Shown here piece after piece: positions 22,553 through 36,919 of a stretch of DNA of 36,919 bases. How positions within the stretch are numbered: the stretch's first letter is position 1; every line of letters starts with the position of its first letter. Below the pieces are notes generated by a model. The model was given only the letters and a program-made list of their open reading frames with translations. It searched no databases and was not told the DNA's origin. The translations under genes and the position numbers were made by a program. The stretch is from Bifidobacterium breve (GTDB lineage Bacteria > Actinomycetota > Acidimicrobiia > Acidimicrobiales > Acidimicrobilacustridaceae), in contig CAMAYJ010000021.1 of assembly GCA_945862505.1 (NCBI GenBank), positions 1 to 36,919 of the forward strand. Direction: 5' to 3'.

Positions 22553-22577
22553 TCCAGCATCCGCTCGAAATGGATTC

Positions 22578-22691: not shown

Positions 22692-22753
22692 ATCGGCCGA
22701 ATCCCGGCGCTAACTACGTCGAACGCCTGACCGATTTGGCCCTCACAGCGGAT

Positions 22754-22782: not shown

Positions 22783-22791
22783 GTCGTCGCT

Positions 22792-22868
22792 GCGCTCGTA
22801 GCTCAATTGGATAGAGCATCTGACTACGGATCAGAAGGTTGGGGGTTCGAGTCCCTCCGAGCGCGCCA
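22792..22868 (+). tRNA. tRNA-Arg (anticodon ACG), integration target
   Basis: 77 nt with encoded CCA. Acceptor GCGCTCG/CGAGCGC, D-arm GCTC/GAGC, anticodon stem TCTGA/TCAGA around CTACGGA (anticodon ACG), and a GGGGG TTCGAGT CCCTC T-arm with one non-canonical G-T pair. Its 3' 51 bp are duplicated at 26805-26855, showing that mobile DNA has inserted here; the gene upstream of the crossover stays intact. Confidence 0.95.
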
Positions 22869-22869
22869 C
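22819..22869 (+). repeat. att site, copy 1 (inside tRNA-Arg)
   Basis: 51 bp from the anticodon stem through CCA plus one C are identical to 26805-26855. They begin TCTGACTACGGATCAGAAGG and end GAGCGCGCCAC. Starting in the anticodon stem-loop is usual for tyrosine-recombinase crossover in tRNA genes. Confidence 0.9.
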
Positions 22870-22892
22870 ATAAGTGCAGCTCAGAACGCTGG

Positions 22893-22922
22893 AGCCGATC
22901 CTACAGGGTCGGCTTCTTGCTT
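22893..22922 (+). terminator. Probable terminator after tRNA-Arg
   Basis: AGCCGATCC-taca-GGGTCGGCT forms a 9-bp stem (one G-T) followed by TCTTGCTTG, a weak T-rich tail. It lies 24 bp after the tRNA, already inside the inserted segment. Confidence 0.55.
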
Positions 22923-22923
22923 G

Positions 22924-22945
22924 TGGGGGGCAATTTGGGGGGCAA
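22924..22945 (+). repeat. Left pair of direct repeats (candidate integrase arm sites)
   Basis: TGGGGGGCAA at 22924-22933 and again at 22936-22945, 12-bp phasing. The same pair in the same orientation and phasing occurs at 26683-26704 near the other end. Followed at 22951-22975 by an inverted repeat GGGGCTT...AAGCCCC. Confidence 0.55.
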
Positions 22946-23085
22946 CTGGAGGGGCTTTCCGCTGCTGGAAGCCCCAAGATGTTTCTCACTTCCAGCAGCA
23001 CTGATGTGTTTCGCAACGATCATGCAATTAGCATTACATCGCTTTAGCCAGCGGGGCCTGAGCGTTTGATCGGCGGCGGGTAATC

Positions 23086-24975
23086 GTGATCACGAAGAAG
23101 TTGCTGTGGGTTGGGTCGGCCGCTGCAGCGGTTGTTCTCGGGATCACAATCGCTTTGATTGTGGTTTCTGGTGGCACCAACCGTGACTCTGGTTCTGCGA
23201 CCAACGCTCAACCTTCGCAGTCCGGTCAAGCGTCGACCACAACGACAACAGCCTCGGAAGATTCAAGTCTCGCTTCACAATTAGTTCGGTCTAAGTCGGT
23301 TGGCTTCTCAACTGGCCAAACTGATGCGGCTCAAGACCCCTCGCTGACGCTAAATAAGGTATGGGTCCAGCCGGGCGATCCGTTGGAAATTGGGGCAACG
23401 AATCTGGCGCCATTTTCCACGGTCCATCTTGAGATCCATTCCGAGGTTATCGACCTTGGTGATGTCATTGCCGATGATTCAGGTTCAGCGTCAACCGTGG
23501 TTACCATCCCGGCTTCGTTAGTGAACGATCAGGGTATCCACATGATCGTCGCCAATGGCATCGATTCCTCTGGCCAGCCATTTGAAATAACGAAACAAAT
23601 TCGTGTCGGGTTCGATTCAGAGGCGCCGTGGCTCGATCCGTTTGGTTCGCCCGGCAGGATTGCAATGTCGACGAATGAGATAGACACCTCTGCTGGTTCG
23701 CAGACGGTAACGATTACTTTGGGAATTCACGATGACTTGTCGGGCTTCGATACCGGCCAGTTCAACTGGATTAGTGAAGATGGGACGATTCGGCCATGGG
23801 CGCCACTTAGGAATTTGGGATACTGCTACCCCGGTGCTCTGTGCTCTATACGAAGTGGCGACGACATCAACGGAACCTACGCCGCTACGGTTCAATTCCC
23901 CATAGGCGGTCAGCAAACGAAATACACGTTTATGGGATTGATGCTTATGGATCGGGTCGGAAATGTCCGTACCTATTGTGATGTTCAGGCCAACATCATG
24001 GGACCATGCGACGTAAATCTCACGACACTCGCGTACGCGGCCGGATCATTCGATATCACCCAAACAGGTGCCGGAGATTCGACGGCACCGACAATCGAAC
24101 CAAATGGCGCATCAGGAGCCATGTCGATATCGACCAACACAATCGACACCTCTAGCAGTGCTCAGAACGTCATGTTTTCCCTAGGAATTCAGGATCCCTT
24201 GTCGGGCTTTGATAGTGGTTCCATGAGTTGGCATCTGGTTGGATCAAGAGGGTTGATCGTTACATGCATTTCGAAACTGATGGGTTCGGTTGGCACCGAA
24301 TTCTTTTGCAAGATCGATTCTGGAGACGAACAAAATGGCTCGTACTCAGGTGCTATCCATTTTCCTGCATACAGTCCGCCGGGAACATACGAGTTTCGAG
24401 GTGTGACTCTCAGGGATAAAGCAGGAAACTACGTGTCCTACGTCGATCCGTCACATTCTGCAGTTGCCGATCATCAACTCGATTTCACAACTCTCGGATA
24501 TGCACCCGGATCGTTCGACATCACTCAAATAGGTGCCGGAGACTTGGTTGGCCCATGGATTGATCAGTTCGGTTCACCCGGAGCCATTTCGTTATCGACC
24601 AATCGAATTGATACTTCAAATAGTTTGCAATCAGTAGCGATAACTTTGGCAGTCCACGACAATCTTTCAGGCTTCAAAAATGGTCAGTTCAACTGGACAA
24701 ACGGGGACGTCTCAGTATCGACCTGCGTTTTCAGGGGTGGTTCATGCGACATCACGTCTGGAGATCAACTCAATGGCACGTATGCAACGGCGGTCCGATT
24801 CGCCGCCAACAGCCCAGCAGGGGTTTACAAGTTCACGCGATTGACAATGTTTGATTACGCCGGAAACAACGTTGGTTACTGCGATTCATCGAACACTTCG
24901 TGTTTCGGCGGCGAAATAGACATAACGACACTCGGATACGCCGCAGGATCACTTGACATCGTCAACGGACCATAA
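23086..24975 (+). CDS. Membrane-anchored secreted protein with three Ig-like repeats
   Basis: 629 residues from GTG 23086 (GGCGGG upstream). An N-terminal hydrophobic helix (about 6-28) after ITKK, without a lipobox, acts as uncleaved anchor or signal. A Ser/Thr-rich linker (about 30-65) and a beta-rich domain (about 80-180) follow. Then three tandem repeats of about 150 residues, starting near 23620, 24085 and 24550. Each runs from a SPGxIxxSTNxIDTS block through DxLSGFxxGxxxW, SGDxxNGxY and DxxGN to TTLxYAxGSxDI. Such repeats are beta-sandwich, surface-adhesin-like modules. Several repeats carry cysteine pairs, suggesting extracellular disulfides. Cargo of the inserted segment; function unknown. 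Confidence 0.8.
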   Translation: MITKKLLWVGSAAAAVVLGITIALIVVSGGTNRDSGSATNAQPSQSGQASTTTTTASEDSSLASQLVRSKSVGFSTGQTDAAQDPSLTLNKVWVQPGDPLEIGATNLAPFSTVHLEIHSEVIDLGDVIADDSGSASTVVTIPASLVNDQGIHMIVANGIDSSGQPFEITKQIRVGFDSEAPWLDPFGSPGRIAMSTNEIDTSAGSQTVTITLGIHDDLSGFDTGQFNWISEDGTIRPWAPLRNLGYCYPGALCSIRSGDDINGTYAATVQFPIGGQQTKYTFMGLMLMDRVGNVRTYCDVQANIMGPCDVNLTTLAYAAGSFDITQTGAGDSTAPTIEPNGASGAMSISTNTIDTSSSAQNVMFSLGIQDPLSGFDSGSMSWHLVGSRGLIVTCISKLMGSVGTEFFCKIDSGDEQNGSYSGAIHFPAYSPPGTYEFRGVTLRDKAGNYVSYVDPSHSAVADHQLDFTTLGYAPGSFDITQIGAGDLVGPWIDQFGSPGAISLSTNRIDTSNSLQSVAITLAVHDNLSGFKNGQFNWTNGDVSVSTCVFRGGSCDITSGDQLNGTYATAVRFAANSPAGVYKFTRLTMFDYAGNNVGYCDSSNTSCFGGEIDITTLGYAAGSLDIVNGP

Positions 24976-25121
24976 ATGCCAGTCGGGGACGTCGAGCGGC
25001 TCAAGACTGTTGGGTGACGGTCAGTTTTTGATGCAATTTCGTTCGGCGCTCACCCGACGCATTGCAAGCGAACTAAACAACCACTGACATGGAAGATCGA
25101 TCGTTCAGGAGAAAGCAATTA

Positions 25122-25772
25122 ATGACCGATGAAGAACATCCAACTCGGCGTTCACGCATCTTTGGCGGACAGGCGACCCGAGCAGAGTTGTATGTGATCG
25201 CCATTGTCATTCTCGTCCTTGGCTTTGGCTCGGTCGGAGGAGCGATCGTCGTATCCAATAGCGGCGGTGGGCAAGAGGCCACGGTTGCAGAGAGCGATCA
25301 GACAACGGCTACATCCGCAGTCAATTCGTCGACGGAAAATGCAAGTACCGGAAACGACGCCGTGGATACTTCATCGCCTATCGCGGCTTCGCCTTCAACT
25401 GCCATCAATGGGCAGGTAACCCCGGGGACAAATTCTGCGGATGAAACTGCTCCGACGACTACGACTCGGTATACGACAACGACGCGCGACCCCAAATACC
25501 TTCAACCGTTTATCGGAGAAGCACGGACGCTGTCCTACTTGGGCGCTGGCTACATCTGCGCTTGGGACTTCCAAGCATTGGGCGGCTGGGGCTGGGGCTT
25601 CGATCCAAAAGAACCGTGCAACCGACAATTCGAGGCATACATCGCATCACACTGTGGCGTTCGAGGTGACCAACCTTGGTACCCGGGATCGCTTGGTTCG
25701 TGGACGGGCACAATCTTTTCTCAAAGATGCGATGAATGGGAAGCACGCGACCTTCCTATTTATTACGGCTGA
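25122..25772 (+). CDS. Membrane-anchored protein with Ser/Thr linker and Cys/Trp-rich C-terminal domain
   Basis: 216 residues from ATG 25122, chosen over an upstream ATG at 25089 because AGGAGA lies 9 nt before it. Basic N-terminus (PTRRSRIFGG), one hydrophobic helix (LYVIAIVILVLGFGSVGGAIVV, about 24-45), a long Ser/Thr/Ala linker to about 130, then a compact domain with four cysteines and many tryptophans, ending LPIYYG. Not a recognised family. Same architecture (anchor, Thr linker, extracellular domain) as the preceding gene, so the pair probably acts at the cell surface. Confidence 0.7.
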   Translation: MTDEEHPTRRSRIFGGQATRAELYVIAIVILVLGFGSVGGAIVVSNSGGGQEATVAESDQTTATSAVNSSTENASTGNDAVDTSSPIAASPSTAINGQVTPGTNSADETAPTTTTRYTTTTRDPKYLQPFIGEARTLSYLGAGYICAWDFQALGGWGWGFDPKEPCNRQFEAYIASHCGVRGDQPWYPGSLGSWTGTIFSQRCDEWEARDLPIYYG

Positions 25773-25885
25773 TTGACGCCGTTAAAAACACTTGCGCTGC
25801 ACCATTCGCAGATCCCACAGAAATTGATACTCCCCGAAAAGCGGCGAGCCAACAACAGTGACTGGGCTTTCACCTAGTCGCTAAG

Positions 25886-26611
25886 TCAGGAGGCGTCGAC
25901 GAAGGATGCGTCGACGGCTTCTTCCCGGTGTTGGTGGAGTTTCTTTCCGGTCCGGACTACTAGCCACGATTCCCAGCCGTCTTGGGCAACGACATCAGCC
26001 GCAACAACGGCTGCTCGGGACGGTGAGTTCCAAATCGTTCCGTCTGCGAGTTGGAATCTGCCGTCGAGAAGAATCGTTGCGTGATGCACCTCTCCTAGTT
26101 TCGGGCGTCTGAATTCGACCGGTTCGTTCGCCGTAAGTGAGCCGATGTCGATGAGATCTTTGACGGTGACTCTTCGACCGCTGGCGTCCTTTGTTTTATA
26201 CGGGGCTTTCGCTGTGGTGCTTGGAGTCGAAGCGGAGGCGACGGGGGCCGGGGGTTCGTGGTCGGCATCGATATCGACGATCTTTCGTCCTAAGTCGTCC
26301 TGATAGAGGGTTACCGGAATCACTGTTACGGGCACGCTGTTTTGTTGGAGGAACTCAAGTGCTGATCGGGTTCGTCCGTGAAAGTCGCGTGCAATGAGCA
26401 CCAGCGACGGAGATCCGGAGATGACTACGGGTGTTGATGTTTCGGTGAACTCTTGCCAGTCGCTGAAGAACGCTTGTTGACCAGCGTGGCCGTCTGCATT
26501 GCGGTTGTAGAGGCTTGCGATTTCGTCGAGGCTGGTTGTTCGTGCCCATCTGTTTCTTTCGGAGTCTCGATAGAACGTTCCTTCACCATTTCGCCGCTTC
26601 TTCGGTGCCAT
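25886..26611 (-). CDS. RAMA-domain (restriction-system modified-DNA reader) protein
   Basis: 241 residues; ATG 26611 has GGAGAAGGAA directly upstream. Residues 60-115 (VVISGSPSLVLIARDF, then TRSALEFLQQNSVPVTVIPV) resemble the alpha/beta half of a nuclease-like domain often joined to RAMA domains in Actinobacteria. Residues 147-229 form a RAMA domain: VTVKDLIDIGSLTANEPVEF, HHATILLDGRFQLADGTIW, SPSRAA (196-201) and DGWESW (211-216). RAMA modules are predicted to read methylated or otherwise modified DNA. Residues 5-23 (RRNGEGTFYRDSERNRW) look like the N-terminal arm-binding strand of tyrosine integrases. No nuclease catalytic set is certain. It lies just inside the right att copy, reading inward. 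Confidence 0.72.
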   Translation of the reverse strand: MAPKKRRNGEGTFYRDSERNRWARTTSLDEIASLYNRNADGHAGQQAFFSDWQEFTETSTPVVISGSPSLVLIARDFHGRTRSALEFLQQNSVPVTVIPVTLYQDDLGRKIVDIDADHEPPAPVASASTPSTTAKAPYKTKDASGRRVTVKDLIDIGSLTANEPVEFRRPKLGEVHHATILLDGRFQLADGTIWNSPSRAAVVAADVVAQDGWESWLVVRTGKKLHQHREEAVDASFVDAS

Positions 26612-26682
26612 TTCCTTCTCCAGTCATGTCGAACTGCTGAGACATCACACAGACGGCCACCACTCCACGATGAACGAAGGGT

Positions 26683-26704
26683 TGGGGGGCAACTTGGGGG
26701 GCAA
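26683..26704 (+). repeat. Right pair of direct repeats (candidate integrase arm sites)
   Basis: TGGGGGGCAA at 26683-26692 and 26695-26704, 12-bp phasing, 100 bp before the right att copy. Same unit and orientation as the left pair at 22924-22945. Confidence 0.55.
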
Positions 26705-26804
26705 CGCAAGGCTGCACTCCAAAACATCAGCAATGACGTACCAGCAGGATTCCCAGTGTTTTGGGTACTTCTGGCGACGTCTGAACACCTACGTAGAGCC
26801 TCGG

Positions 26805-26855
26805 TCTGACTACGGATCAGAAGGTTGGGGGTTCGAGTCCCTCCGAGCGCGCCAC
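26805..26855 (+). repeat. att site, copy 2 (3' tRNA-Arg fragment)
   Basis: 51 bp identical to 22819-22869, lacking the 5' half of the tRNA, so it is not a functional tRNA gene. It is the right end of the 4-kb segment and the left end of the following integrase-bearing element. No third copy is found to the end of the window. Confidence 0.9.
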
Positions 26856-26895
26856 CTGCTTTCGCTTGTACGTCCGGGTTTCTCCATGTGAGGTG

Positions 26896-26946
26896 TCAGT
26901 TCCTGAACACTCAGGAGTACTGATGCTCAGCCACCTGCTCAGCCAC
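26896..26946. promoter_or_regulatory. Dyad and phased direct repeats upstream of the integrase
   Basis: TCAGT-TCCTGA-acac-TCAGGA-gt-ACTGA (26896-26923) is an inverted repeat with a 2-nt bulge. It is followed by GCTCAGCCAC at 26925-26934 and 26937-26946, again with 12-bp phasing. Between att (26855) and the integrase start (27020), these are likely binding sites for integrase, excisionase or a repressor. Function inferred from position. Confidence 0.45.
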
Positions 26947-27019
26947 GGAACAGCAACTGCACCTTCACAGGCGTCAAACCTGTGCCTCGTCGAGACCCCG
27001 AAGGTTCGGTGAGTTGCAG

Positions 27020-28330
27020 ATGGCGAAGGCATCAAATGGGGCGGGTTCAATCTTCCCGGTCAAGAATCGGGATGGGAAAGTCACCGGTTATCGGGTTGAA
27101 ATGAGCCTTGGGTTCAAACCGAACGGGAAGCGGGCGCGTACTCGCCGGGTCGTCAAGACCCTGCGAGAGGCTCGGGATCTGCGAACACGGCTGGCGTCGG
27201 ATCTTCTCGATGGCCGCCTCTCAACTGTTCAGGCGGACACGGTGGCGAGTTACGGACTCCGCTGGGTTCGGGAAGTCAAGGCCCTACAGGTTCGTCCCAC
27301 GACGGCTGCCGACTATGAAGATCGGCTTCGACGTTGGATCCTTCCGAGTTTGGGTCACATCCGGCTTATTGACCTTCGTCCGCAGCAGATCGAGGCTTGG
27401 ATGGCGGAACTGCGGCAACGTGGCCTGAGTGCTGCAACAGTCAACGGCTCGCGACAGATTCTCAATGCGCTGTGCAAGCACGCTGCTCGAACTGGGGTCC
27501 TTTCCTCCAATCCGGTGCTGGCGACCGATCCCGTGAAGCGGCAATCCACGGACCCGACGCAGGTTCGGCAGCATTGGGGGCTAGATGAGATGTGGAAGGT
27601 TCTCGAAGCGGCAAGGAACGATGAACTCGACACGTTTCTTCACCTGCTGATTCACACAGGAATGCGACCCGGAGAGGCTCTCGGGTTGCGGTGGCAGGAC
27701 ATCGACCTCGACGGGAGATTGGTCCACATTTCAGGGACCCTCAAAGAGAGTCGGACCCTCAACTCAGATGGCAGTGGAGTGGTTCGACTGCTTCGCAACA
27801 GCACCAAGACCGAAGCAAGCCATCGAACTCTCGCAATCTCCGAGGCTCTTGCCGAGTCACTGATCCGTCAACAGATGCGTCAATCGATTCAGCAAGCGGC
27901 TTCAGTCGAGCGCTGGACAAATTCGGGTTTCGTGGTCACCACCGTTGTGGGGACACCGTGTTCGTTGTCCAATGTTCGGAAGATGTTTCGAAAATTCGTA
28001 GCGGAGATTGATGTGCGCTACATCCGGCTTCATGACATTCGCCATAGCGTTGCAACGGCGTCACTGAACGAGGGCCGAATGCCGATCGAGCAGACAAGTC
28101 AGGCGCTTGGACACTCACGGATCGACACCACAAAGCGCATCTATGCAAAGAATGTGCCTCGCTACAACCTTGAATTCATCGAGGGCATGAGCCGAATTCT
28201 GCCTCCGTCTCCAAATCGTGACGCAGGTCAGCCTTCGAGAGACTGGGCTTCGACTGCAGTGAAGTCGGAACCCGCGCTTAAACAACCGGAGTCGTTCCCA
28301 TCGACCGATATACATACAACCAAACGGTGA
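27020..28330 (+). CDS. Tyrosine site-specific integrase
   Basis: Recombinase that integrates the element at tRNA-Arg. ATG 27020 with GGTGAG 6 nt upstream gives 436 residues; a TTG two codons earlier is also open. N-terminal arm-binding domain (about 1-60, GAGSIFPVKNRDGKVTGYRVE), core-binding SAM-like domain (about 70-160), then the catalytic domain with Arg216 (HTGMRPGEALGLRW), Lys263 (STKTEASHRTL), His338-x-x-Arg341 (LHDIRHSVAT), His365 (ALGHSRID) and the nucleophile Tyr375 (KRIYAK). All catalytic residues are intact. First gene after the second att copy and reading inward, the standard placement. Confidence 0.95.
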   Translation: MAKASNGAGSIFPVKNRDGKVTGYRVEMSLGFKPNGKRARTRRVVKTLREARDLRTRLASDLLDGRLSTVQADTVASYGLRWVREVKALQVRPTTAADYEDRLRRWILPSLGHIRLIDLRPQQIEAWMAELRQRGLSAATVNGSRQILNALCKHAARTGVLSSNPVLATDPVKRQSTDPTQVRQHWGLDEMWKVLEAARNDELDTFLHLLIHTGMRPGEALGLRWQDIDLDGRLVHISGTLKESRTLNSDGSGVVRLLRNSTKTEASHRTLAISEALAESLIRQQMRQSIQQAASVERWTNSGFVVTTVVGTPCSLSNVRKMFRKFVAEIDVRYIRLHDIRHSVATASLNEGRMPIEQTSQALGHSRIDTTKRIYAKNVPRYNLEFIEGMSRILPPSPNRDAGQPSRDWASTAVKSEPALKQPESFPSTDIHTTKR

Positions 28331-28385
28331 CGGAGACCCTAAACGTGGTCTGAGGTGACCTACTTCCACGTCATTCGGTTCCCGG

Positions 28386-28426
28386 CCTCCCCGCTTTGCA
28401 GCCTTACGGCTGCTGCAGCGGGAGGG
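28386..28426. terminator. Nested stem-loop between convergent integrase and repA-like genes
   Basis: CCCGCT-tt-GCAGCC-ttac-GGCTGC-tgc-AGCGGG (28389-28422) forms inner and outer 6-bp stems, extended by CCTC/GAGG with a bulge. There is no T-run, so it may be a bidirectional terminator or a structural element. A second hairpin ATCCCGG-gccatt-CCGGGAT follows at 28452-28471. Confidence 0.45.
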
Positions 28427-28451
28427 ATGGCGAATTTCTTGGATCCCGCAG

Positions 28452-28533
28452 ATCCCGGGCCATTCCGGGATGTAGAAACCCTTCTATTTCCAGCATTTTT
28501 GACGTGGCCGAAAGACATTCGGGGATATCCCGG
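28452..28533. repeat. Recurring ATCCCGG / CCGGGAT motif beside the repA-like gene
   Basis: ATCCCGG occurs at 28452-28458 and 28527-28533, its inverse CCGGGAT at 28465-28471, with a near copy ATCCCGC at 28443-28449 and CGGGGAT at 28520-28526. The cluster straddles the 3' end of the RepA-like gene. It could be iterons of a replication origin; this is speculative. Confidence 0.3.
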
Positions 28534-29578
28534 ACGCTGTGGGGGACCACCATCCCCATGTCGATCCCGCGTCGTTGGAGGGATCAGACCCTTCGTCGAA
28601 GGTTTCACTCTTACTCCGTGGGCTAATTGAAGGCTCTTCTTTCCGCATTTTTGTCACTATTTCACTGACTTTCTTGGCGCATCTTTCACCCAGCGCTCCG
28701 AGCGCAGCACGTGTTTCATCGTTGGTGAGGCCGCGTGGAGTACCTGTGGAGTCGAGCAGGTCAGCCAATTGTTGCGCGTGAAGTTCTGCGCTGAGACCCC
28801 GTGTGTTTTCAGTGACCTTGTGGTGCAATGTTGGGGTGGTCTCTCGTTTGAGGGCGAGGTGTTCGAATCCCCCGTGCATGCGGGCTGCGTCACGTCGAAG
28901 GAAGATCCGACCGGTTCGATCGGCTGTCATCCGGATCACTAAGTCAACGTCTCCAGATTTTGCACTTGCTCCGCGCGCGCCTTTGGAATGATCTTTCCCT
29001 ACGTGGTCGATACGCAGGACCGCGACTCGTGCTTGTTTCATTGGAAGTTCGAAGAGTCTGTAGAAGGCATTCCACGTGTCGTTGCTGTTTTCATCTCCGT
29101 TCACGACTCTCGAGACGGTGTCGATGATGACAAGTTTGATGTCATGTGCCTTGACGATTTGGGCGAGTTGCGCCCCTCCGGCTGCCGTATCGAACGGCTC
29201 CAAGATCGGGTACCACAGGTAGATCAAGTTTTCGAAATTGCCCGGCTTGTATCCGAACTCCAGAAGTCGAGATTTAACGTCTGTCTCAATGTTGTTTTCC
29301 ATATCGATATACAGCACCTTTGTCTTTCGAGTAGGGCGACCCAAGACCGGTTTACCGAGAGATACGGCTACAGCAATCTCAAGTGCGAGAAGCGACTTCC
29401 CGATCTTTGCTTCTCCTACGAGTGCTGTGAGCCGGTCCTCAGCGAGGATCCCTTCAACGATCCACTTCTCTCCGACAAAGGGTGTTGTCATCAAAAGGTC
29501 GAGGTCGACGTAACCGGGGAGTTCGGTAACGCAACCAGTGAATTTGGATGAATTTACGTGGGCATACATGTGAATCAA
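28484..29578 (-). CDS. RepA-like AAA ATPase (replicative helicase-like)
   Basis: 364 residues from TTG 29578 (AGGA 7 nt upstream, 4-bp TTGA overlap with the previous stop) or 361 from ATG 29569. RecA-fold ATPase: Walker A GEAKIGKS (55-62), KVLYIDMEN strand (about 87-95), Walker B VIIDTVSR (about 150-157), and RIDHVGKDHSKGARGASAKSGDVD (sensor region). This is the AAA_25/RepA type found in plasmids and integrative elements, where it unwinds DNA during element replication. The C-terminal 80 residues are polar with a Ser/Asp-rich tail. Cotranscribed after the HTH gene. Confidence 0.85.
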   Translation of the reverse strand: MIHMYAHVNSSKFTGCVTELPGYVDLDLLMTTPFVGEKWIVEGILAEDRLTALVGEAKIGKSLLALEIAVAVSLGKPVLGRPTRKTKVLYIDMENNIETDVKSRLLEFGYKPGNFENLIYLWYPILEPFDTAAGGAQLAQIVKAHDIKLVIIDTVSRVVNGDENSNDTWNAFYRLFELPMKQARVAVLRIDHVGKDHSKGARGASAKSGDVDLVIRMTADRTGRIFLRRDAARMHGGFEHLALKRETTPTLHHKVTENTRGLSAELHAQQLADLLDSTGTPRGLTNDETRAALGALGERCAKKVSEIVTKMRKEEPSISPRSKSETFDEGSDPSNDAGSTWGWWSPTASGISPNVFRPRQKCWK

Positions 29579-30093
29579 TTTTCCTTTCGGGGTTTCCGGT
29601 TGATTTCCGGGTCGATGAATCCAGCCTTTCGGGCTAGGGAGATGCGCCGTGCTGCTGTGGAGACAGCAATACCAAGTGATTCGGCGACGTAGCGCTGCAC
29701 TGGCTTCGCTAGGCGATACGCATCGCTGTAGAGCGACGCAACGAGAAGTAAATCCTCGCGGGTGAGGTCACGGGTGCTGTCAGGTCCTGACCATTGGTGG
29801 ATGAAGTCTTCGGGAGACAAATCTGTCTGTGACGACGAATCTCCGCTCAACTTCTCGGGGTGTTGAGTTGTGAACTCCGTTCTGGCATTTCGGATCAGTT
29901 CAGCAAGACCGAGGTTTCGAATGACCACTGGGGTAACGAAACCATCGGTTTCAGCCGACTCAATCGCGATTGCTCCTACTTCGAAGCGGCCGCGGACCAT
30001 CTTGAAATCGAGAAACACTCTGAGTCGGCCATGGTTTGGAGACTCAACATCGAGGACAACGTCAGCGTCACGAGGGGTTTGGTTGTATGACAT
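29575..30093 (-). CDS. Helix-turn-helix protein of an integrative element
   Basis: 172 residues. The N-terminal 75 residues are beta-rich (ADVVLDVESPNHGRLRVFLDF), the middle is polar, and the C-terminal 129-160 contain a helix-turn-helix (KPVQRYVAESLGIAVSTAAR, then RKAGFI) and a basic tail RKPRKEN. The C-terminal shape resembles small DNA-binding proteins that precede RepA genes in actinobacterial elements. Leaderless start: TATAGT lies 6 nt before the ATG. Probable element regulator or replication accessory protein; no named family recognised. Confidence 0.7.
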   Translation of the reverse strand: MSYNQTPRDADVVLDVESPNHGRLRVFLDFKMVRGRFEVGAIAIESAETDGFVTPVVIRNLGLAELIRNARTEFTTQHPEKLSGDSSSQTDLSPEDFIHQWSGPDSTRDLTREDLLLVASLYSDAYRLAKPVQRYVAESLGIAVSTAARRISLARKAGFIDPEINRKPRKEN

Positions 30094-30099
30094 GTACTA

Positions 30100-30105
30100 A
30101 CTATA
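30100..30105 (-). promoter_or_regulatory. -10 box of the leaderless HTH-repA operon promoter
   Basis: On the minus strand TATAGT is followed by TAGTAC and the ATG at 30093. TTGTGT about 18 nt further upstream could be a -35. This would drive the HTH and RepA-like genes. Confidence 0.5.
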
Positions 30106-30301
30106 TCACCAAAACAGCGAACCACACAAATTTGGGATTCTCTAAGTGCAACCGCTGATTGATCTGCTTCGCTGCGCAGTAGACCGAATCGGGCCTGATG
30201 GTCCCGGACCGGAGCCATTTCGAGATGGGCGGTCCCGTTAGATCTAACCAACTCGCCTCAACTTCGTCCCCAGAAGTTGCATGGGGTTGAGGTTCGGCCA
30301 T
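30101..30301 (-). CDS. Small ORF, possible HTH/regulatory protein
   Basis: 66 residues from ATG 30301. The middle (DLTGPPISKWLRSGTIRPDS, then VYCAAKQINQRLHL) could form a short helix-turn-helix, and the end is hydrophobic. No ribosome site, and its last codons overlap the promoter of the downstream HTH gene. A real regulator of this operon is possible, but a chance frame is about as likely. Confidence 0.35.
   Translation of the reverse strand: MAEPQPHATSGDEVEASWLDLTGPPISKWLRSGTIRPDSVYCAAKQINQRLHLENPKFVWFAVLVI
30237..30248. repeat. Palindrome GTTAGATCTAAC (copy 1)
   Basis: Perfect 12-bp palindrome. An 11-of-12 match, GTTAGATCTAAT, occurs exactly 200 bp downstream at 30437-30448. The two copies flank the start regions of the divergent small ORFs, so they are candidate operators. 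Confidence 0.4.
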
Positions 30302-30335
30302 GGGAAAATTGGCTCTGAAACTTTGAGGAGTCGAA

Positions 30336-30521
30336 ATGACGCGAGAAGAAGCAAACGAACGTGCCGCTCAATGGACGCGATCACGCGGCCGTGCGAACAC
30401 TTTTCAGAGTCCCCGTCAACGAGTCGGGCAGGATCGGTTAGATCTAATGGCAGAGAAAAGCCGTCGCCGAGGACCGTTGGTAGGCCGGTATGTCACCGCG
30501 CGCGTGCTGGAGCGTCGCTAG
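30336..30521 (+). CDS. Small basic protein, tail-to-tail with the restriction enzyme gene
   Basis: 61 residues, very basic (RSRGRANTFQSPRQRVGQDR, EKSRRRGPLVGRYVTARVLERR). ATG 30336 has a strong GAGGAG at 30325-30330, 5 nt before it. Its TAG stop overlaps the stop of the 1608-aa enzyme on the other strand in one CTAG. Composition suggests nucleic-acid binding. No family recognised. It is the only convincing plus-strand gene between the integrase and the window end. Confidence 0.55.
   Translation: MTREEANERAAQWTRSRGRANTFQSPRQRVGQDRLDLMAEKSRRRGPLVGRYVTARVLERR
30437..30448. repeat. Palindrome GTTAGATCTAAT (copy 2)
   Basis: Near-perfect copy of the 30237 palindrome, inside the 61-aa ORF, 200 bp away start to start. 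Confidence 0.35.
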
Positions 30522-33500
30522 AGATTCAAACTAGGCAAACTCGCAACAATCTCGTTTGTCCGCATCGAGACGGTGACGATCCGTCGCACAAGGTCGAAGA
30601 TGTAGGTCGGGTCGTCGTGTTCGATAGCCCAGTCATTGGGGTCATTGACGATCCCAGAGTCTTTGTCCGGCTTGACTTGATAGCGGTCAACGACCCAATC
30701 CAATGCTGACTTAGACCCAACCATGTAGCGATGAGCATCTGGAGGAATGCCAGTTATGGACACCTCAGAATTGAATTCAATTCGTGTTCGATCAGTGAGT
30801 TTTCCCTCGCGACCATAAGAGAGTTTCGTTACGGAGATTCTCGAGAGAGTTTCGGCACCAGACGTGAAATTCAGGGTTGGCCAAGGGTCGACACGTTCGT
30901 AGTTGAGGTGCAAATCGGCCAGTTCGCTTCCCGAGTGAACAAACTTCGCGAAATCATTGGAATTGGCCGGTAGCGGAATCCGTGGGGCGGTCTTCTTCAA
31001 GTCGGCGGAGAATCTCTCTCGATACGTCGGATGGTGCAGAACTCCGTAGACAAAATTGAAGATGTCCTCGTTCGAAATCTGCATCTCAAACCGATGGCGG
31101 AGCATTGAGAGGGTTCCGGCGGCGATTCCTGACATGCGCCCGCGGCTCGGCTCTTGGTCTTCAAAAAGCCCCGGACTTCGAACGGCGTCTGTCTTGGCTT
31201 CCTTCTCGTAGACCCAGAGTGGAAAACAGGTTGAACCACTAATTCCCCACAATCCAAGGTCGGGAACAGAATCGACCATGAAGACTCCAAATGGCGAAGG
31301 GGACCCTTTTGCTGGAATGCAGATCACACGATTCTCTGAATCTGCTTCCGGAAACAAGCGCTCAAGTTGGTAGCGCGTGTTGTTCAGATCAGGGTGGAAG
31401 TTTACGTGTTCCTTCACGAACGGACGGTATGTGGACTCTCGTATGAACTCATCGGGTCGCTCGTACTCGCGACGAGAGGCAATACGATCGAAGTCGGCGC
31501 GATCCCAACTGAAAAGAGTTGGATCCAGTGTCACGAACTTCCTAATTGAATCGACTCGCTGACCGCGTTTACTCGGTGGATTAGGGAATTCGCGGTAGTA
31601 CTCGCGAAGTTGGGAGTTGTAGAAAGAAACCATTTTCTTGGCATTTCGCTGGACGCGATCCAGCGAAAAGTTGTAATTCCATGCATCACGGTTCGTTTTC
31701 AGCCCGCTTGTCTGCATGATGAAAAGACCCGAGGAATCTGGAGTCTCGAGGAGCGGAAAGAACTCTTGAAATTCCTCTGACCGAAGGTTCACCCAGTCGC
31801 CGAAATCATTCGGGTCGAGAACTGTCCATGGGACTGCGTCGAGCACCTCATCGGTCGAGTACCCGCGCACCAAGGCAAGTTTTTGGTCGCGAGTCATGTA
31901 GTCATCAACTGAGGAAAAATGAATCTCACCCCCCATCGCCGGGACTGGCCCGGGTTCTTTCACAAGCACGGTGACCGCAATTCCAACGCGAACGTTGAAG
32001 ACATTTCCGCCCTCGCGACGAAGGGAGTCACCAGTCAATCTCGAATTTCCACGTAGGTCGAAGCAATACACGTGGTGAAACTCTGATGCGAGCGTCTTCC
32101 TGAAACCATCAAACGTGTTTGAGTCGATGAATCCGCCGTTTGTTACGAAGGCAACGATTCCACCCCCATCACAACTCAATACTCTGTTCGCGGACCAGCG
32201 GAACGCTCGAACATACGAGTCATAGAGACTGTTCTTCAGTTTCGCACTGGAACTTCTCGCATAAGTCTCCGCTATAGAACCGTCGAGTGTTGGGTAAGTT
32301 AGATTTTGATTGTTGTCATTTTGACTCGACTGGCCAACTGAATATGGCGGATTTCCAACGATGACGCGGATGCCGAGACCCTTCTGATGCGTGGCACGTT
32401 CGTTGTTGATCGGGAAGACGTCCATTGATCCGGTGCCGTCACCGGCCTCTCCGAGTTGGAATGTGTCGGTGAGGACAATGCCGTCGAATGACTCGTAGTC
32501 GGCTTTGCCTAGTTCGCTAACCACTACGTCATGGAATGTGGATTCGATGTTGATTGCGGCGATGTAATAGGCGAGCAGAAGGTATTCGTTGCTATGAAGT
32601 TCGCGCTTGTACTTTCTCGCTAAGTCTTCGGGTTTGATGATTCCGGATTGGAGGAGTCGGACGGTGAAGGTTCCGGTGCCGCAGAAGGGGTCGAGGATGT
32701 TCACGCCCTCGTCAGTCATTGACATCCCGTTGAAGTGTTTGCGCAGGGCGTGGTCGGCGGCGTGGAGGACGAAGTCGACAAGTTCGATTGGGGTGTAGAC
32801 GATGCCGAGTGATTCGGCGGCTTTGGGAAAGGCCTTGGAAAAGAAGCCTTCGTAAAGTTCGGTGATGATCTTCTGTTTGCCTGCGGCGTTGTCGATGCCT
32901 TCGACTCGCATGCGGACACTGTCATAGAAACCTTCGAGCGATTCGGTTTCCTTATCGAGGGAATGCTCGTCGAGTAGGTCGATCATTCCTTGCATTGCCT
33001 TCGAAACCGGGTTTGATTCGGTGAAAGCGAATTCGGTGAAGAGCGCTTCAAAGATCGGTTTGGTGATGAGATGCTGGGAAAGCATCGTGATCGCGTCATC
33101 ACGAGTGATGCTGTCGTTGATGGTCGCGTGAAGTCCGGCGACGAAATGATCGAATGCTTCACTGACACCCACGTTGGGGTCTTCAATGAGGGCGGTGATT
33201 CGTGTGTGATGGCGGGCGGCGATATCGGCGACGTCTTTGGCCCAGTCTTCCCAGTAGTGGCGTGTGCCGACTTTGAGAACCAACTTGGCGTAGATGCCTT
33301 CTCGGAGTTCGTCGATGGGAAATCCGAGTTCGAGTTGGCGCTGCTTTTCAGGATCGTTGGGGTCAGTTGGGTCGGTTGCGTCATCATCGATGTCGGTAAC
33401 CGAGATGATTTCAATGTTGTCAGGCGGTTCTTCGTTCAGGTCAAGACGATTGATCGTGATGTTCATGCGGTCATCGTGTGATCGCAACGCGTTAAGTACC

Positions 33501-35344
33501 TGCCACACCGCTTGGAAACGCTTGTTGTCTGAAAGTGCTTGCTCTGGGGTTTGGTCTGACGGGATACCTACAGGCAGGACGACGTAGCCGAATTTCTTGC
33601 CCTCTCCGGCTTTGCGCATGACACGGCCAACGGCCTGAATCACATCAACCTGAGAATTACGAGGTTCTAGGAACAAGATTGCATCAAGAGCAGGAACGTC
33701 AACGCCTTCAGTAAGGCACTTGGCGTTGGAAAGAATCTTGCAACTGTCATCGGCAGGTTCGGTTTTCAGCCAATGGAGAAGTGATTCGCGCTTCAGCGAA
33801 TTGAATTTTCCATCCACGTGATCGACATCAACATGGAATTGGGAGTCGAGTTTGGCTTTGTTGTTCCACTGCGATGCAATCTCGGCGAAGAGGCCCGTGA
33901 ACTTCTTTGATTGAGCGATGGTGTTTGAGAACGCCACGGCCCGCTGCATTGGCTCGGGATCTGACGCGAACGAGGTGCCAAGAGCATCACGTTTCGCAAG
34001 GGCGTTGACACAGCCGACAATGCGGGTTGCGTCATCAAGTTTGATTTCGTTGTTTTCGTCCGACAGTTGTCGTTGGAACGCGCGCGAAACCGCGGCCTCG
34101 TCAACGGCGAGGATCAGAACCTTGTAATCGGTGAGGAGATCGCGTTGTACTGCTTCGTGGAATCCGAGTCGGTAGAACTCGGGGCCATAGAGCGTCTGGT
34201 CGTCCATTGACGCCAGTACTGCATCGGCTCCCGATGCTTTACCCTTCGCCGAGTCGCTGAACACGCGCGGCGTGGCAGTCATATAAAGGCGCTTGGCGCC
34301 TTTCACATAGTTGTTGTCATGCACACGCGTGAAGTTCGAGTCGTCCTCACCAGCGATGGTGACACCTGTGGTGCGGTGTGCTTCGTCGGCGATGATGAGG
34401 TCAAAATCGGGAACCCCGTTGGCTTGGGCGGCTTCGATGACGGGAAGTGATTGGTAGGTGGAGAAGAACACGGTCATGTTCTCCGTACCTGAGGTTCGCT
34501 TGTATTGGGCAACGATCAGGTCAGGGTCGGTCGTTGCCGGGAGTACGAGGTCGTAGGGGGAGATGTCCTCGGTGTTGCCTCGTTTCCCGGCCTTTGAGTC
34601 AGAGCAAATCGCCAAAGGAGCGAGAGGAATAGTGGCGTCTGCAGTCCACTCTTTGAGGGTTTGTGACAGCAGCGAAATCGATGGGGTGAGGACGAGGACG
34701 TTGCCGCCTGCTCCTACGAGTTCTTCTGCGATTCGCTGGGCAGTGAAGGTTTTGCCAGTGCCGCAGGCCATGATGAGTTTGCCGCGATCAGAGGTTTTGA
34801 AGCCGCTGAGGGTTTCGTCGAGGGCTTGGGTTTGATGCGGGCGTTGAGTTTTGCGGGGACAGACCTTCAGCGCTTCGAGATTGTTGAGATCCCACTGGCC
34901 CCAGTCAATGGTGGATTCATCAAGATCTTCTATCCCGATACGTTGAACGGGTTTGTCTTGACCGCGCAAAGCATCTTCAGCGTGCTTTGACCAGTTGCTT
35001 GATGTGGAGACGATGATGCGGTTCGTAAACGGTGCTTTGCCAGATGCGGTGAAGAATGAGTCAATGTCGCTTTTGTTGATGGTGTTTGTTGGTGCGTAGC
35101 ACTTGCATTGGATGGCGGTGTATCCGGATCCGTCTGCGTTTTCGACAACAAGGTCAATACCGGTGTCGACTTTGCCTTCGTTGCCGGGCCAGTCGCTCCA
35201 CATCCACACGTTGTTGAACATGGATTTATAGGTGCGGTCGCTACGAAAGAACGCGGCCATGAGTCGTTCGAATCGGTCGCCAACTTCTTTGGTGTTGGTT
35301 GATGATTCGCGGATGCGTTCGAGAACGTCGTCAATCGTTGTCAT
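30518..35344 (-). CDS. Type ISP single-chain restriction-modification enzyme (LlaGI/LlaBIII-like)
   Basis: One 1608-residue polypeptide with both activities, close in size to LlaGI-type enzymes (about 1570-1580). Domain order: Mrr-like PD-(D/E)xK nuclease with Asp64 (TGIDLVV) and Gln79-x-Lys81 (IQCKCY); SF2 RecA-like ATPase with Walker A ACGTGKT (193-199), DEAH (320-323), TATPR (356-360) and QAVGRVMR (570-577); an alpha-helical coupler (about 690-830); gamma-class N6-adenine methyltransferase with motif I DPFCGTGTFT (885-894) and motif IV NPPY (998-1001); and a C-terminal target-recognition region (about 1150-1600). All motifs are intact. In the family it methylates one strand of an asymmetric site and translocates before cutting. 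It follows the DUF262 gene by 5 bp. The recognition site cannot be predicted. Confidence 0.93.
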   Translation of the reverse strand: MTTIDDVLERIRESSTNTKEVGDRFERLMAAFFRSDRTYKSMFNNVWMWSDWPGNEGKVDTGIDLVVENADGSGYTAIQCKCYAPTNTINKSDIDSFFTASGKAPFTNRIIVSTSSNWSKHAEDALRGQDKPVQRIGIEDLDESTIDWGQWDLNNLEALKVCPRKTQRPHQTQALDETLSGFKTSDRGKLIMACGTGKTFTAQRIAEELVGAGGNVLVLTPSISLLSQTLKEWTADATIPLAPLAICSDSKAGKRGNTEDISPYDLVLPATTDPDLIVAQYKRTSGTENMTVFFSTYQSLPVIEAAQANGVPDFDLIIADEAHRTTGVTIAGEDDSNFTRVHDNNYVKGAKRLYMTATPRVFSDSAKGKASGADAVLASMDDQTLYGPEFYRLGFHEAVQRDLLTDYKVLILAVDEAAVSRAFQRQLSDENNEIKLDDATRIVGCVNALAKRDALGTSFASDPEPMQRAVAFSNTIAQSKKFTGLFAEIASQWNNKAKLDSQFHVDVDHVDGKFNSLKRESLLHWLKTEPADDSCKILSNAKCLTEGVDVPALDAILFLEPRNSQVDVIQAVGRVMRKAGEGKKFGYVVLPVGIPSDQTPEQALSDNKRFQAVWQVLNALRSHDDRMNITINRLDLNEEPPDNIEIISVTDIDDDATDPTDPNDPEKQRQLELGFPIDELREGIYAKLVLKVGTRHYWEDWAKDVADIAARHHTRITALIEDPNVGVSEAFDHFVAGLHATINDSITRDDAITMLSQHLITKPIFEALFTEFAFTESNPVSKAMQGMIDLLDEHSLDKETESLEGFYDSVRMRVEGIDNAAGKQKIITELYEGFFSKAFPKAAESLGIVYTPIELVDFVLHAADHALRKHFNGMSMTDEGVNILDPFCGTGTFTVRLLQSGIIKPEDLARKYKRELHSNEYLLLAYYIAAINIESTFHDVVVSELGKADYESFDGIVLTDTFQLGEAGDGTGSMDVFPINNERATHQKGLGIRVIVGNPPYSVGQSSQNDNNQNLTYPTLDGSIAETYARSSSAKLKNSLYDSYVRAFRWSANRVLSCDGGGIVAFVTNGGFIDSNTFDGFRKTLASEFHHVYCFDLRGNSRLTGDSLRREGGNVFNVRVGIAVTVLVKEPGPVPAMGGEIHFSSVDDYMTRDQKLALVRGYSTDEVLDAVPWTVLDPNDFGDWVNLRSEEFQEFFPLLETPDSSGLFIMQTSGLKTNRDAWNYNFSLDRVQRNAKKMVSFYNSQLREYYREFPNPPSKRGQRVDSIRKFVTLDPTLFSWDRADFDRIASRREYERPDEFIRESTYRPFVKEHVNFHPDLNNTRYQLERLFPEADSENRVICIPAKGSPSPFGVFMVDSVPDLGLWGISGSTCFPLWVYEKEAKTDAVRSPGLFEDQEPSRGRMSGIAAGTLSMLRHRFEMQISNEDIFNFVYGVLHHPTYRERFSADLKKTAPRIPLPANSNDFAKFVHSGSELADLHLNYERVDPWPTLNFTSGAETLSRISVTKLSYGREGKLTDRTRIEFNSEVSITGIPPDAHRYMVGSKSALDWVVDRYQVKPDKDSGIVNDPNDWAIEHDDPTYIFDLVRRIVTVSMRTNEIVASLPSLNL

Positions 35345-35349
35345 GGTGT

Positions 35350-36919
35350 TCAGTTGCTCTCGGTTGGGTCGTCGATTTCGATGTCGGATTCGTCGAACAG
35401 GTCGCGATATTCAGACCGGATGTCTTTCAGCGGCTTCCCTGTTGGTTCGTGGATCCAGAAGTCCCATCCGCCTTCGGCTTGGGTGCCGGTGATGGCCTTC
35501 GCTGCTCCGCTTGGGTATTGGCGGTGTTCGCCGTTATCAAGTTCGATGCTGCCGTCGGATCGCACCTTGGCATAGCGGTCACTGAAGGTACTGCGCACGG
35601 GGATGAGTTTGTCCCCTGCGGCGATTAGTCCGGCATCAACCAGAGTTGAGAGATACACGTAGGTTGACGACCCGTTGTCAGGCATGGGGTGTGTGATGTT
35701 CACCCGATGGCCTTCAGGGACCGGCCAGATCGTCAGAATGCTTCGGGCGAGAAGACGAGTCCTGCTGTCGATATTTTCGGCAGTCCAACCGTCGACGCCT
35801 ATTTCGATGATGTCTGCATTGAGTCGCAGTAGCGAATGTTCTTTCAGAGCGTCGCGCTTGCTCTTCTCGCCTAACCAAGGTTTGTTCGAGTTCGAACTGT
35901 TCAACTTGCCGGTGATCAAGGTGAGGTTCCCAAGCGTGTCGACGAGTTGCTTACGACCTGCTTCTGACTCACCCGGCTGGAGGGGCCAGTTCGCTTCCCA
36001 TCTGCGGGGCATGACGTGTTCGATGCTGAGCGTGCCTCGCGGGCAGCGGGCCTCTGCCTTTGGCGACGGTCCATCTGTGGTGAATCCACGTCGCTGATCT
36101 TCGAGTGCTTCGAGAATGAACCGGACACGTGGTCGCCGAAGGCGCCGATAGATGGGGAGTGTTGCGATTTCGCGCACGACTTCCTCGTCGTCTGGCCAGT
36201 ACGAGGAATCGGATGTCTGTTGACGAAAAAAGGTTTCGACGAAATCACCGGCTTCTGCGCGTGGCCCTTTGCGAATCTCCGCGACAAGTTGGGCAAACAC
36301 AAGGTTGTGACGTTTCGTGGTTGCTCGAACAAGCATCCGTCGAACGAGGAAACTCTCGATTACTCCAAGCGCCTTCGAGAGTTGCGATATCTCAATTGGG
36401 TCTTCCTCGGGGTCGAGAAGAACTAGGACTACAGCGCGAACGATGTCCACATCGAGGGCCTGCATCCGGTAGGAGAAGAGTCCGAGCCGGGAGATATTGC
36501 TATCTGAGTTGGTTGCTGACTTGAGGAAATCCTCGTAAATCACCGAGGACCGATGGATCTGTTCCAACAACTCGGCCATCGAGAGACCGCAAACATGGTT
36601 GGCGTAGTTCTTGAATTGTGCGAACACTTCTTGAGCAGCAACTGGCTCACCGAGTCGGGAAACGAGGAACGAATTCAAGAACATCGACGCGCGCGGATAG
36701 CGCAAACGTCCGACGCTGTCTTCTTCTTCCCAGAACGCCGTCTCAAAGTGCTTCCAATACATCTCATAGGAGCGCTCAGTATTCGCGCCCTCTTCGAGGA
36801 GTTTCTGAAACACAAAGTTCTTAATGAGATCAGCGGCGCTGAGTTGAGCGCCACGTGAATTCAACGTCTCGAAAATCTCTTGAGCGTTCTCATCACTGTC
36901 AAGATCAATAACTACGAGT
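35350..36919 (-). CDS. DUF262-DUF1524-RAMA protein (GmrSD-like, 5' end outside window)
   Basis: Frame is open to the window end, so the N-terminus is missing. Visible order: the C-terminal part of DUF262 with VVIDLDSDENAQEIFETLNS then RGAQLSAADLIKN (near 36919-36820), a helical middle, a DUF1524 HNH-type nuclease motif SIEHVMPRRWE (around 36018) with GNLTLITGKLNSSNSNKPW, and a C-terminal RAMA-like domain from about 35650 to 35409 (DKLIPVRSTFSDRYAKV, DGSIELDNGEHRQYPSGAAK, GGWDFW). DUF262/DUF1524 are the GmrS and GmrD parts of a modification-dependent type IV restriction enzyme; RAMA is a predicted modified-base reader. First known gene of the operon with the Type ISP enzyme. The DUF262 DGQQR motif would lie outside the window. 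Confidence 0.85.
   Translation of the reverse strand, partial: LVVIDLDSDENAQEIFETLNSRGAQLSAADLIKNFVFQKLLEEGANTERSYEMYWKHFETAFWEEEDSVGRLRYPRASMFLNSFLVSRLGEPVAAQEVFAQFKNYANHVCGLSMAELLEQIHRSSVIYEDFLKSATNSDSNISRLGLFSYRMQALDVDIVRAVVLVLLDPEEDPIEISQLSKALGVIESFLVRRMLVRATTKRHNLVFAQLVAEIRKGPRAEAGDFVETFFRQQTSDSSYWPDDEEVVREIATLPIYRRLRRPRVRFILEALEDQRRGFTTDGPSPKAEARCPRGTLSIEHVMPRRWEANWPLQPGESEAGRKQLVDTLGNLTLITGKLNSSNSNKPWLGEKSKRDALKEHSLLRLNADIIEIGVDGWTAENIDSRTRLLARSILTIWPVPEGHRVNITHPMPDNGSSTYVYLSTLVDAGLIAAGDKLIPVRSTFSDRYAKVRSDGSIELDNGEHRQYPSGAAKAITGTQAEGGWDFWIHEPTGKPLKDIRSEYRDLFDESDIEIDDPTESN

What the first reader, a model, noticed from the sequence alone, without database searches (positions are those of the whole stretch)
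30518..36919. Two-gene defence operon: Type ISP enzyme behind a DUF262-DUF1524-RAMA fusion
The sequence shows a complete 1608-aa single-chain restriction-modification enzyme (nuclease, helicase, gamma-MTase, target domain) 5 bp downstream of a protein joining GmrSD-type nuclease parts to a RAMA reader. Known Type ISP enzymes (LlaGI, LlaBIII) act alone. Here one gene would cut DNA lacking its own methylation and the other could sense modified DNA. That could cover phages that evade the first by base modification, or the reader could recognise the host's own m6A marks to restrain the nuclease. I am not aware of a described system with this composition.
Basis: partly seen in the sequence, partly recalled or inferred. 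Interest (0 to 1): 0.78.

Follow-up and report, generated by a model that had tools for sequence, protein, structure and literature searches.

The report
Two neighbouring restriction genes, not one system
A mobile stretch of bacterial DNA carries two different anti-virus DNA-cutting genes side by side, but each belongs to a known family and the two were not found together as intact neighbours in the other genomes examined, so this looks like an ordinary defence-gene cluster rather than a new two-part system.

Summary
Window 30518-35344(-) encodes a complete 1608-aa Type ISP enzyme; 5 bp upstream ends a DUF262-DUF1524-RAMA gene whose first ~203 codons are missing because the contig ends with the window.

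The pairing as a system is not supported. None of 80 fetched relatives of the fusion has an intact Type ISP gene in its flanks (one has a gutted remnant), and none of 57 other Type ISP loci has the fusion next door. A methyltransferase gene within 200 bp is no commoner beside RAMA-bearing GmrSD genes (8 of 88) than beside RAMA-less ones (3 of 31).

Best reading: two independent restriction layers on an integrative element at a tRNA-Arg gene: Type ISP against unmodified DNA, the GmrSD-type nuclease probably against modified DNA. That principle is in print (BrxU in BREX, TgvAB in a Type I locus), and GmrSD proteins with DUF4357, which overlaps RAMA, were reported in 2015. RAMA as an m6A reader is unproven.

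A full-length relative models best on DndI and SspE (self-mark-sensing nucleases), with a CcrM/MPND-like RAMA, so a methylation-restrained nuclease is not excluded, only unlikely.

The parts
30518..35344 (-). Type ISP restriction-modification enzyme, 1608 aa, complete
   Evidence: all five domains of LlaBIII/LlaGI, catalytic motifs present
34883..35242 (-). Mrr-family nuclease domain (Mrr_cat_2) of the ISP enzyme
   Evidence: residues 35-154; GID...QCK at 62-81
33611..34849 (-). SF2 helicase-like ATPase (ResIII 166-360, Helicase_C 467-578)
   Evidence: ACGTGKT and DEAH motifs
32882..33256 (-). ISP coupler domain
   Evidence: residues 697-821
32306..32875 (-). N6-adenine (gamma) methyltransferase domain
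   Evidence: DPFCGTGTF 885-893, NPPY 998-1001
30590..31726 (-). Type ISP C-terminal target-recognition domain
   Evidence: residues 1207-1585
35350..36918 (-). DUF262-DUF1524-RAMA (GmrSD-RAMA) protein, 522 aa of an estimated ~725; N-terminus beyond the contig end
   Evidence: 50 of 80 relatives' frames are 690-770 aa and 24 are 771-930 aa
36808..36915 (-). C-terminal end of GmrSD_N (DUF262), positions 161-199 of 199
35743..36198 (-). GmrSD_C (DUF1524, His-Me/HNH nuclease); EHVMP, GNL and Asn motifs
   Evidence: H301, N331, N340, N345 invariant in the 46 aligned sequences
35401..35673 (-). RAMA domain
27014..28330 (+). tyrosine (phage-type) integrase of the element that carries the pair
   Evidence: Phage_integrase E 2.8e-22
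28484..29578 (-). AAA_25 ATPase of the element (RepA-like is my label)
   Evidence: E 3.1e-30
29575..30093 (-). 172-aa protein with weak helix-turn-helix matches, overlapping the AAA_25 gene
   Evidence: HTH_24 E 0.027, below cut-off
22792..22868 (+). tRNA-Arg(acg), attachment site
26805..26855 (+). 51-bp perfect repeat of the 3' half of tRNA-Arg(acg): attachment-site copy 158 bp before the integrase

Best explanation
Two independent restriction genes ride side by side, probably in one transcript, on an integrative element inserted at tRNA-Arg(acg). The Type ISP enzyme methylates adenine at its own sites and, when it meets unmethylated sites, translocates and cuts (known for LlaGI/LlaBIII, inferred here from the intact domains). 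The GmrSD-RAMA protein is most likely a self-contained modification-dependent (Type IV-like) nuclease: DUF262 binds and hydrolyses nucleotide, DUF1524 cuts, and RAMA docks on DNA and may help to read a modification. Together they would cover unmodified and modified invaders. Neither needs the other. Shown here: anatomy, mobile-element context, lack of conserved pairing, mostly stand-alone habit of the fusion family. Inferred: co-transcription, activities, and what RAMA reads.
For: Domains and motifs. No intact ISP gene in the flanks of 80 of 80 named relatives of the fusion (65 of 80 have at least 5 kb downstream and 63 at least 5 kb upstream; 71 have at least 1 kb on both sides). No fusion neighbour at 57 of 57 other ISP loci (of the 58 loci counted with the window, 54 have at least 500 bp upstream, 39 downstream, 37 both). 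MTase genes within 200 bp: 8 of 88 RAMA-bearing GmrSD loci against 3 of 31 RAMA-less, so the fusion is mostly stand-alone, which PMC11037411 (passages) uses as the argument for modification dependence of another family. 46 of 46 aligned members match GmrSD_N, GmrSD_C and RAMA; DGQQR in 77 of 80 and EHxxP in 79 of 80 reading frames. tRNA-Arg attachment repeat and integrase. Precedents for GmrSD genes next to other restriction systems: PMC4619093, PMC8565348, PMC11411939 (passages).
Against: The 5-bp spacing and shared strand would also fit a real pair. In 'Candidatus Corynebacterium avicola' (L106) a Type ISP remnant lies 15 bp upstream of an intact fusion gene, so the two have met at least twice, in opposite order. 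The closest solved folds are DndI and SspE, nucleases that sense self marks, ahead of BrxU. Some fusion genes do sit beside methyltransferases (8 of 88, or 11 with three that the detector missed). No activity was tested, and the window's own DUF262 nucleotide motif lies beyond the contig end.
Confidence: 0.68

Rival explanations
1. A coupled system: RAMA reads the m6A that the ISP enzyme puts on host DNA and releases or restrains the GmrSD nuclease there, so that DNA without the mark is cut (DndI-like self/non-self logic with m6A in place of phosphorothioate).
For: The model of the full-length relative L056 matches DndI (9jfl, Z 23.9, rmsd 6.7 over 543) and SspE (Z about 22) better than BrxU (Z 14.8), with the C-terminal part matching CcrM (Z 13.8, rmsd 1.6, 88 residues) and MPND-DNA (Z 12.1, rmsd 1.6, 83 residues). 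DndI leaves self DNA on sensing its mark (abstract of PMC11662687). 5-bp spacing; ISP remnant beside the fusion in L106.
Against: Without a dedicated methyltransferase such a nuclease would attack its host, yet most relatives have none detected nearby and none of 80 has an intact ISP gene in its flanks. RAMA of MPND did not bind 6mA DNA significantly better (passages of PMC9963953).
Confidence: 0.1
2. Chance neighbours with no functional link beyond co-mobility; the fusion's target is unrelated to what ISP leaves uncovered.
For: Same neighbourhood counts; defence genes of several kinds flank relatives: a helicase pair in a mycobacterial locus, HipA, Type I and Type III genes.
Against: Shares nearly all evidence with the best explanation; differs only in denying complementary benefit, which precedents make plausible (PMC8565348, PMC11411939).
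Confidence: 0.17
3. One of the two genes is inactive, for example the fusion is truncated for real rather than by the assembly.
For: The N-terminal ~203 residues were not found on any other contig of the draft genome; the only match to that part is the C37 paralogue.
Against: The frame is open to the end of the contig and the visible catalytic residues are kept.
Confidence: 0.05

Closest known systems
Type ISP enzymes LlaBIII (PDB 4xqk) and LlaGI (PDB 5ffj)
   Same: All five domains in the same order; LlaBIII alignment over residues 3-1606
   Different: Own target domain; target sequence unknown
GmrSD-family Type IV enzymes (GmrSD, Eco94GmrSD, BrxU)
   Same: DUF262 + DUF1524 single chain with DGQQR and EHxxP motifs in relatives; BrxU fold Z 14.8 for L056
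   Different: Extra C-terminal RAMA domain; substrate unknown. GmrSD homologues with an additional DUF4357 were reported in PMC4619093 (passages), and DUF4357 matches 17 of 46 members here
DndI and SspE
   Same: Best fold matches of the model of L056
   Different: They sense phosphorothioate and work with dnd/ssp genes; none was seen among the window genes scanned; RAMA is additional
GmrSD-type genes next to or inside other restriction systems: BrxU in BREX, TgvAB in a Type I locus, RloF
   Same: GmrSD-family gene beside a methylation-based system (PMC8565348, PMC11411939, PMC4619093 passages)
   Different: Here the partner is Type ISP, and the pairing is not recurrent in the loci examined
RAMA domains of CcrM (6pbd) and MPND (7ydw)
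   Same: C-terminal domain of the L056 model superposes at 1.6 A
   Different: Fused to a nuclease; m6A reading unproven

Membership tests
Type ISP restriction-modification enzyme | Single chain with Mrr nuclease, SF2 ATPase, coupler, N6-methyltransferase and target-recognition domain | tested here: met
   full-length match to LlaBIII; PADLOC model covers residues 1-1607
Type ISP restriction-modification enzyme | Catalytic motifs of nuclease, ATPase and methyltransferase present | tested here: met
   with the alignment
Type ISP restriction-modification enzyme | Adenine methylation of an asymmetric site and cleavage after translocation | not testable with these tools
   needs methylome and cleavage assay
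GmrSD family (Type IV) | DUF262 domain with nucleotide motif DGQQR | tested here: inconclusive
   window gene is cut by the contig end, only positions 161-199 seen; motif present in 77 of 80 relatives' frames
GmrSD family (Type IV) | DUF1524 His-Me nuclease with EHxxP, GNL and Asn | tested here: met
GmrSD family (Type IV) | Cleaves modified DNA, not unmodified DNA | not testable with these tools
   only the mostly stand-alone habit points that way
DndI/SspE self-mark-sensing nucleases | Fold | tested here: met
   Z 23.9 and about 22 for the full-length relative L056 (the window protein itself was not modelled); SspE full-chain rmsd is about 20, so domain arrangement differs
DndI/SspE self-mark-sensing nucleases | Works with phosphorothioation genes dnd/ssp | not tested
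   no dnd/ssp genes among the window proteins scanned, but the genome was not searched for them
Dedicated two-gene ISP + GmrSD-RAMA system | The two genes recur as intact neighbours | tested here: not met
   0 of 80 fusion loci and 0 of 57 ISP loci; one remnant (L106)
m6A-reading RAMA domain | RAMA fold | tested here: met
   Pfam in window; CcrM and MPND superposition for L056
m6A-reading RAMA domain | Preference for N6-methyladenine DNA | not testable with these tools
   not confirmed even for MPND (PMC9963953 passages)

The most novel reading that the evidence does not exclude
GmrSD-RAMA is a nuclease whose action is set by adenine methylation through RAMA: it either cuts m6A DNA in contexts the host lacks, or is held off host DNA by the m6A that a neighbouring enzyme such as Type ISP provides, a DndI-like self/non-self switch built on m6A instead of phosphorothioate.
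Probability: 0.12. Interest if true: 0.65.

Novelty: new member of a known kind. Interest (0 to 1): 0.27.

Why it matters
The result mainly stops a pairing from being counted as a new system. It also marks out a widespread family that I found no test of in the papers searched: DUF262-DUF1524-RAMA proteins in, among others, actinobacteria, Nitrospira, proteobacteria and planctomycetes (80 fetched of 360 stretches that encode a relative; RAMA detected in 78 of the 80; the other 280 were not checked for RAMA). If RAMA senses adenine methylation in them, they would give a direct test of the unproven proposal that RAMA is an m6A reader.

Tried and rejected
Rejected: RAMA-bearing GmrSD genes as dedicated partners of adenine methyltransferases. 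Three of the first four RAMA-bearing relatives looked suggestive (L015 Eco57I-type, L017 helicase plus Eco57I-type genes that I would call DISARM-like from recall, L018 Type I), but the control gave 8 of 88 RAMA-bearing against 3 of 31 RAMA-less loci with an MTase within 200 bp, and 20 of 88 against 5 of 31 within 5 kb. That detector (home-made profiles) missed at least L056 (Eco57I-type fragment, gap 23 bp), L095 (HsdM, gap 61 bp, distance mis-estimated) and L123 (251-aa frame with NPPY); adding them gives 11 of 88. The RAMA-less set was not re-read by hand in the same way. The control set was 35 loci fetched, chosen because their frame is about 540 aa or longer, plus nine earlier loci (L017 to L025 set); five were dropped because no GmrSD frame was found (L209, L213, L216, L223, L224), leaving 8 RAMA-bearing and 31 RAMA-less. 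L022 is only a 199-aa fragment.

Dead ends: a scan of viral contigs with the fusion gave no relative and one with the ISP enzyme gave two (no fusion next door). The missing N-terminus was sought in the own genome without success. No Rfam family besides the tRNA at gathering threshold in 22000-36919. PDB hits of the L136 RAMA protein to recA-fusion chains look like linker artefacts. VIA-align rows under Z 5 were ignored. The output was cut in display (L090 to part of L106); the counts come, which cover all 80. Of the ISP places, 30 of 36 had loci and were examined; of 197 plasmid records, 10 were opened. L140/L141 are two pieces of one frame and L035/L055 probably two halves of one split gene, so 57 loci are about 55 genes.

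Literature: searches of the held open-access library; among the papers listed I saw none joining Type ISP to a GmrSD-RAMA gene. Listings were capped and subscription papers are not held. Papers were seen as passages (PMC4619093, PMC12839542, PMC8565348, PMC12707154, PMC11037411, PMC11411939, PMC9963953) or abstract and outline (PMC11662687); others only as search listings. No paper was read whole.
Full report
What is there. The window is the whole of contig C21 (36,919 bases) of a 2.32-Mb draft genome in 115 contigs. On the minus strand, 30518-35344 encodes 1608 aa with the nuclease, SF2 ATPase, coupler, N6-methyltransferase and target-recognition domains of a Type ISP enzyme. It aligns to LlaBIII (4xqk) across residues 3-1606 and to LlaGI (5ffj) across 163-1382, and its motifs are present. 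Upstream, after 5 bp, ends a 522-aa open frame with the end of DUF262, a complete DUF1524 and a RAMA domain. It is cut by the contig end. Of 80 relatives' frames 50 are 690-770 aa, 24 are 771-930 aa and 6 are shorter, and full-length ones begin about 203 residues earlier, so about 610 bp are missing. No other copy of that part was found in the genome apart from a RAMA-less paralogue.

Setting. tRNA-Arg(acg) lies at 22792-22868. A perfect 51-bp copy of its 3' half lies at 26805-26855, 158 bp before a tyrosine integrase at 27014-28330. Between the integrase and the ISP gene lie an AAA_25 gene and a small possible DNA-binding gene. G+C is 0.55-0.60 left of the tRNA and 0.52-0.55 over the pair. 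I read this as an integrative element starting near 26805 and running past the contig end, next to another insertion at 22869-26855. In same-genus genomes the tRNA site also has repeat copies (for example G019:C43), so it is probably an integration hotspot; that is inference. No relative of the fusion at E 1e-10 or better was found in the other 36 genomes of the family searched, in line with recent gain.

Are the two genes a unit? A scan of the contigs of 84,980 species' genomes found 360 stretches that encode a relative of the fusion; the best 80 were fetched with up to 10 kb on each side. Six-frame comparison found ISP sequence in 1 of 80: 'Candidatus Corynebacterium avicola' (L106), where stretches matching ISP residues 1-180 and 1457-1603 remain in about 1 kb, 15 bp upstream of an intact fusion gene, in the opposite gene order to the window. 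Of the 80, 65 have at least 5 kb downstream and 63 at least 5 kb upstream; 71 have at least 1 kb on both sides. From the other side, 57 ISP loci other than the window's, from the order, class and phylum samples, ten plasmids and two viral contigs, were tested with profiles of the fusion and of RAMA: 0 of 57 have the fusion; 1 of 57 (L136) has a different RAMA nuclease. Most genome loci carry only about 1.5 kb of flank, the plasmid and viral loci up to 6 kb. Of the 58 loci including the window, 54 have at least 500 bp upstream, 39 downstream and 37 both. The pair is therefore not conserved in what was examined.

What the fusion family does on its own. In 46 aligned members, the window's included, Pfam finds GmrSD_N, GmrSD_C and RAMA in 46 of 46, and DUF4357 in 17 (it lies within the RAMA region at L018). 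GmrSD homologues with DUF4357 were described in 2015 (PMC4619093, passages), so the architecture is probably not new. RAMA is found in 78 of 80 frames with a profile made from the family itself; the two without are a broken frame (L075) and one cut by a contig end (L096). AlphaFold2 on the full-length relative L056 with 45 others gave mean pLDDT 87. Its best fold matches are DndI (Z 23.9), SspE (Z about 22) and BrxU (Z 14.8); residues 616-707 match CcrM's C-terminal domain and 620-706 MPND's RAMA at 1.6 A. The whole-chain rmsd to SspE and BrxU is 18-20, so only the domains, not their arrangement, agree. A fold match does not show function.

Control for a methylation link. Among RAMA-bearing GmrSD loci 8 of 88, and among RAMA-less ones 3 of 31, have a detected methyltransferase gene within 200 bp; corrections and dropped rows are listed under Tried and rejected. 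So RAMA does not visibly go with local methyltransferases more than GmrSD genes do in general. The host itself carries a run on contig C37 of a methyltransferase-type gene, DUF262/DUF1524 without RAMA and two further genes, which I read as HsdM, HsdS and HsdR (the last two by gene order and similarity to Type I sets elsewhere, not by a Pfam scan), similar to the RloF arrangement in print. The same genome has three N6_Mtase matches, so a GmrSD-RAMA that cut all m6A DNA would probably damage its host; if it reads m6A, sequence context must matter.

Mechanism. I commit to two independent layers: ISP cuts unmethylated target sites (mechanism of the family as in the abstract of PMC4666363, search listing); the fusion acts as a modification-dependent nuclease. 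Stand-alone occurrence was used as the argument for modification dependence of another m6A-reading fusion family in PMC11037411 (passages). BrxU with BREX (PMC8565348, passages) and TgvAB inside a Type I locus (PMC11411939, passages) show the principle. The coupled alternative borrows from DndI, whose ATPase is stimulated by its mark and which then leaves self DNA (PMC11662687, abstract). What RAMA reads is open: MPND's RAMA bound double-stranded DNA but 6mA did not significantly raise binding (PMC9963953, passages).

Verdict. Observation confirmed; system claim not supported; each gene a member of a known family in a mobile defence cluster. The RAMA-bearing GmrSD family, for which I found no experimental test in the papers searched, is the part most worth bench work.

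Noticed in passing
window 25886-26611 (-): A second RAMA protein, 241 aa, similar to PADLOC PDC-S14 (E 1.6e-11). It lacks the first ~94 residues of its homologue L136 (34% identity over 218 aa), which hold that protein's nuclease-like part. The genome's only two RAMA matches are both in this window, and 1 of 20 other same-genus genomes has any.
   Followed up: partly
L136 567-1478 (G609:C11): A 303-aa gene with a C-terminal RAMA domain and an N-terminus that looks like a PD-(D/E)XK nuclease (weak NucS match) starts 1 bp after a Type ISP gene 50% identical to the window's.
   Followed up: partly
L058, L060, L063 (mycobacteria): A same-strand trio with gaps of about 20 bp or less: 2121-aa DruE-like helicase with MZB domain, 737-aa UvrD-like helicase, and GmrSD-RAMA. 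Domains were scanned in L058 only; L060 and L063 have frames of nearly the same length and start. It may be a real multi-gene system.
   Followed up: partly
L106 8367-9385: Type ISP gene reduced to stretches matching its first ~180 and residues 1457-1603, directly before an intact GmrSD-RAMA gene.
   Followed up: partly
G000 contig C37, L025 7252-15108: A same-strand run in the same genome: N6-methyltransferase gene (HsdM-like) - DUF262/DUF1524 without RAMA - two genes read as HsdS and HsdR.
   Followed up: partly
L191 10926-11765 (Komagataeibacter plasmid pGX5): A gene annotated as TIR-like nucleotide-binding protein starts 14 bp after a Type ISP gene.
   Followed up: no
window 23086-24975 (+): 629-aa protein with DUF7035/DUF7743 matches between the tRNA-Arg and its repeat copy, in a stretch of lower G+C.
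   Followed up: no
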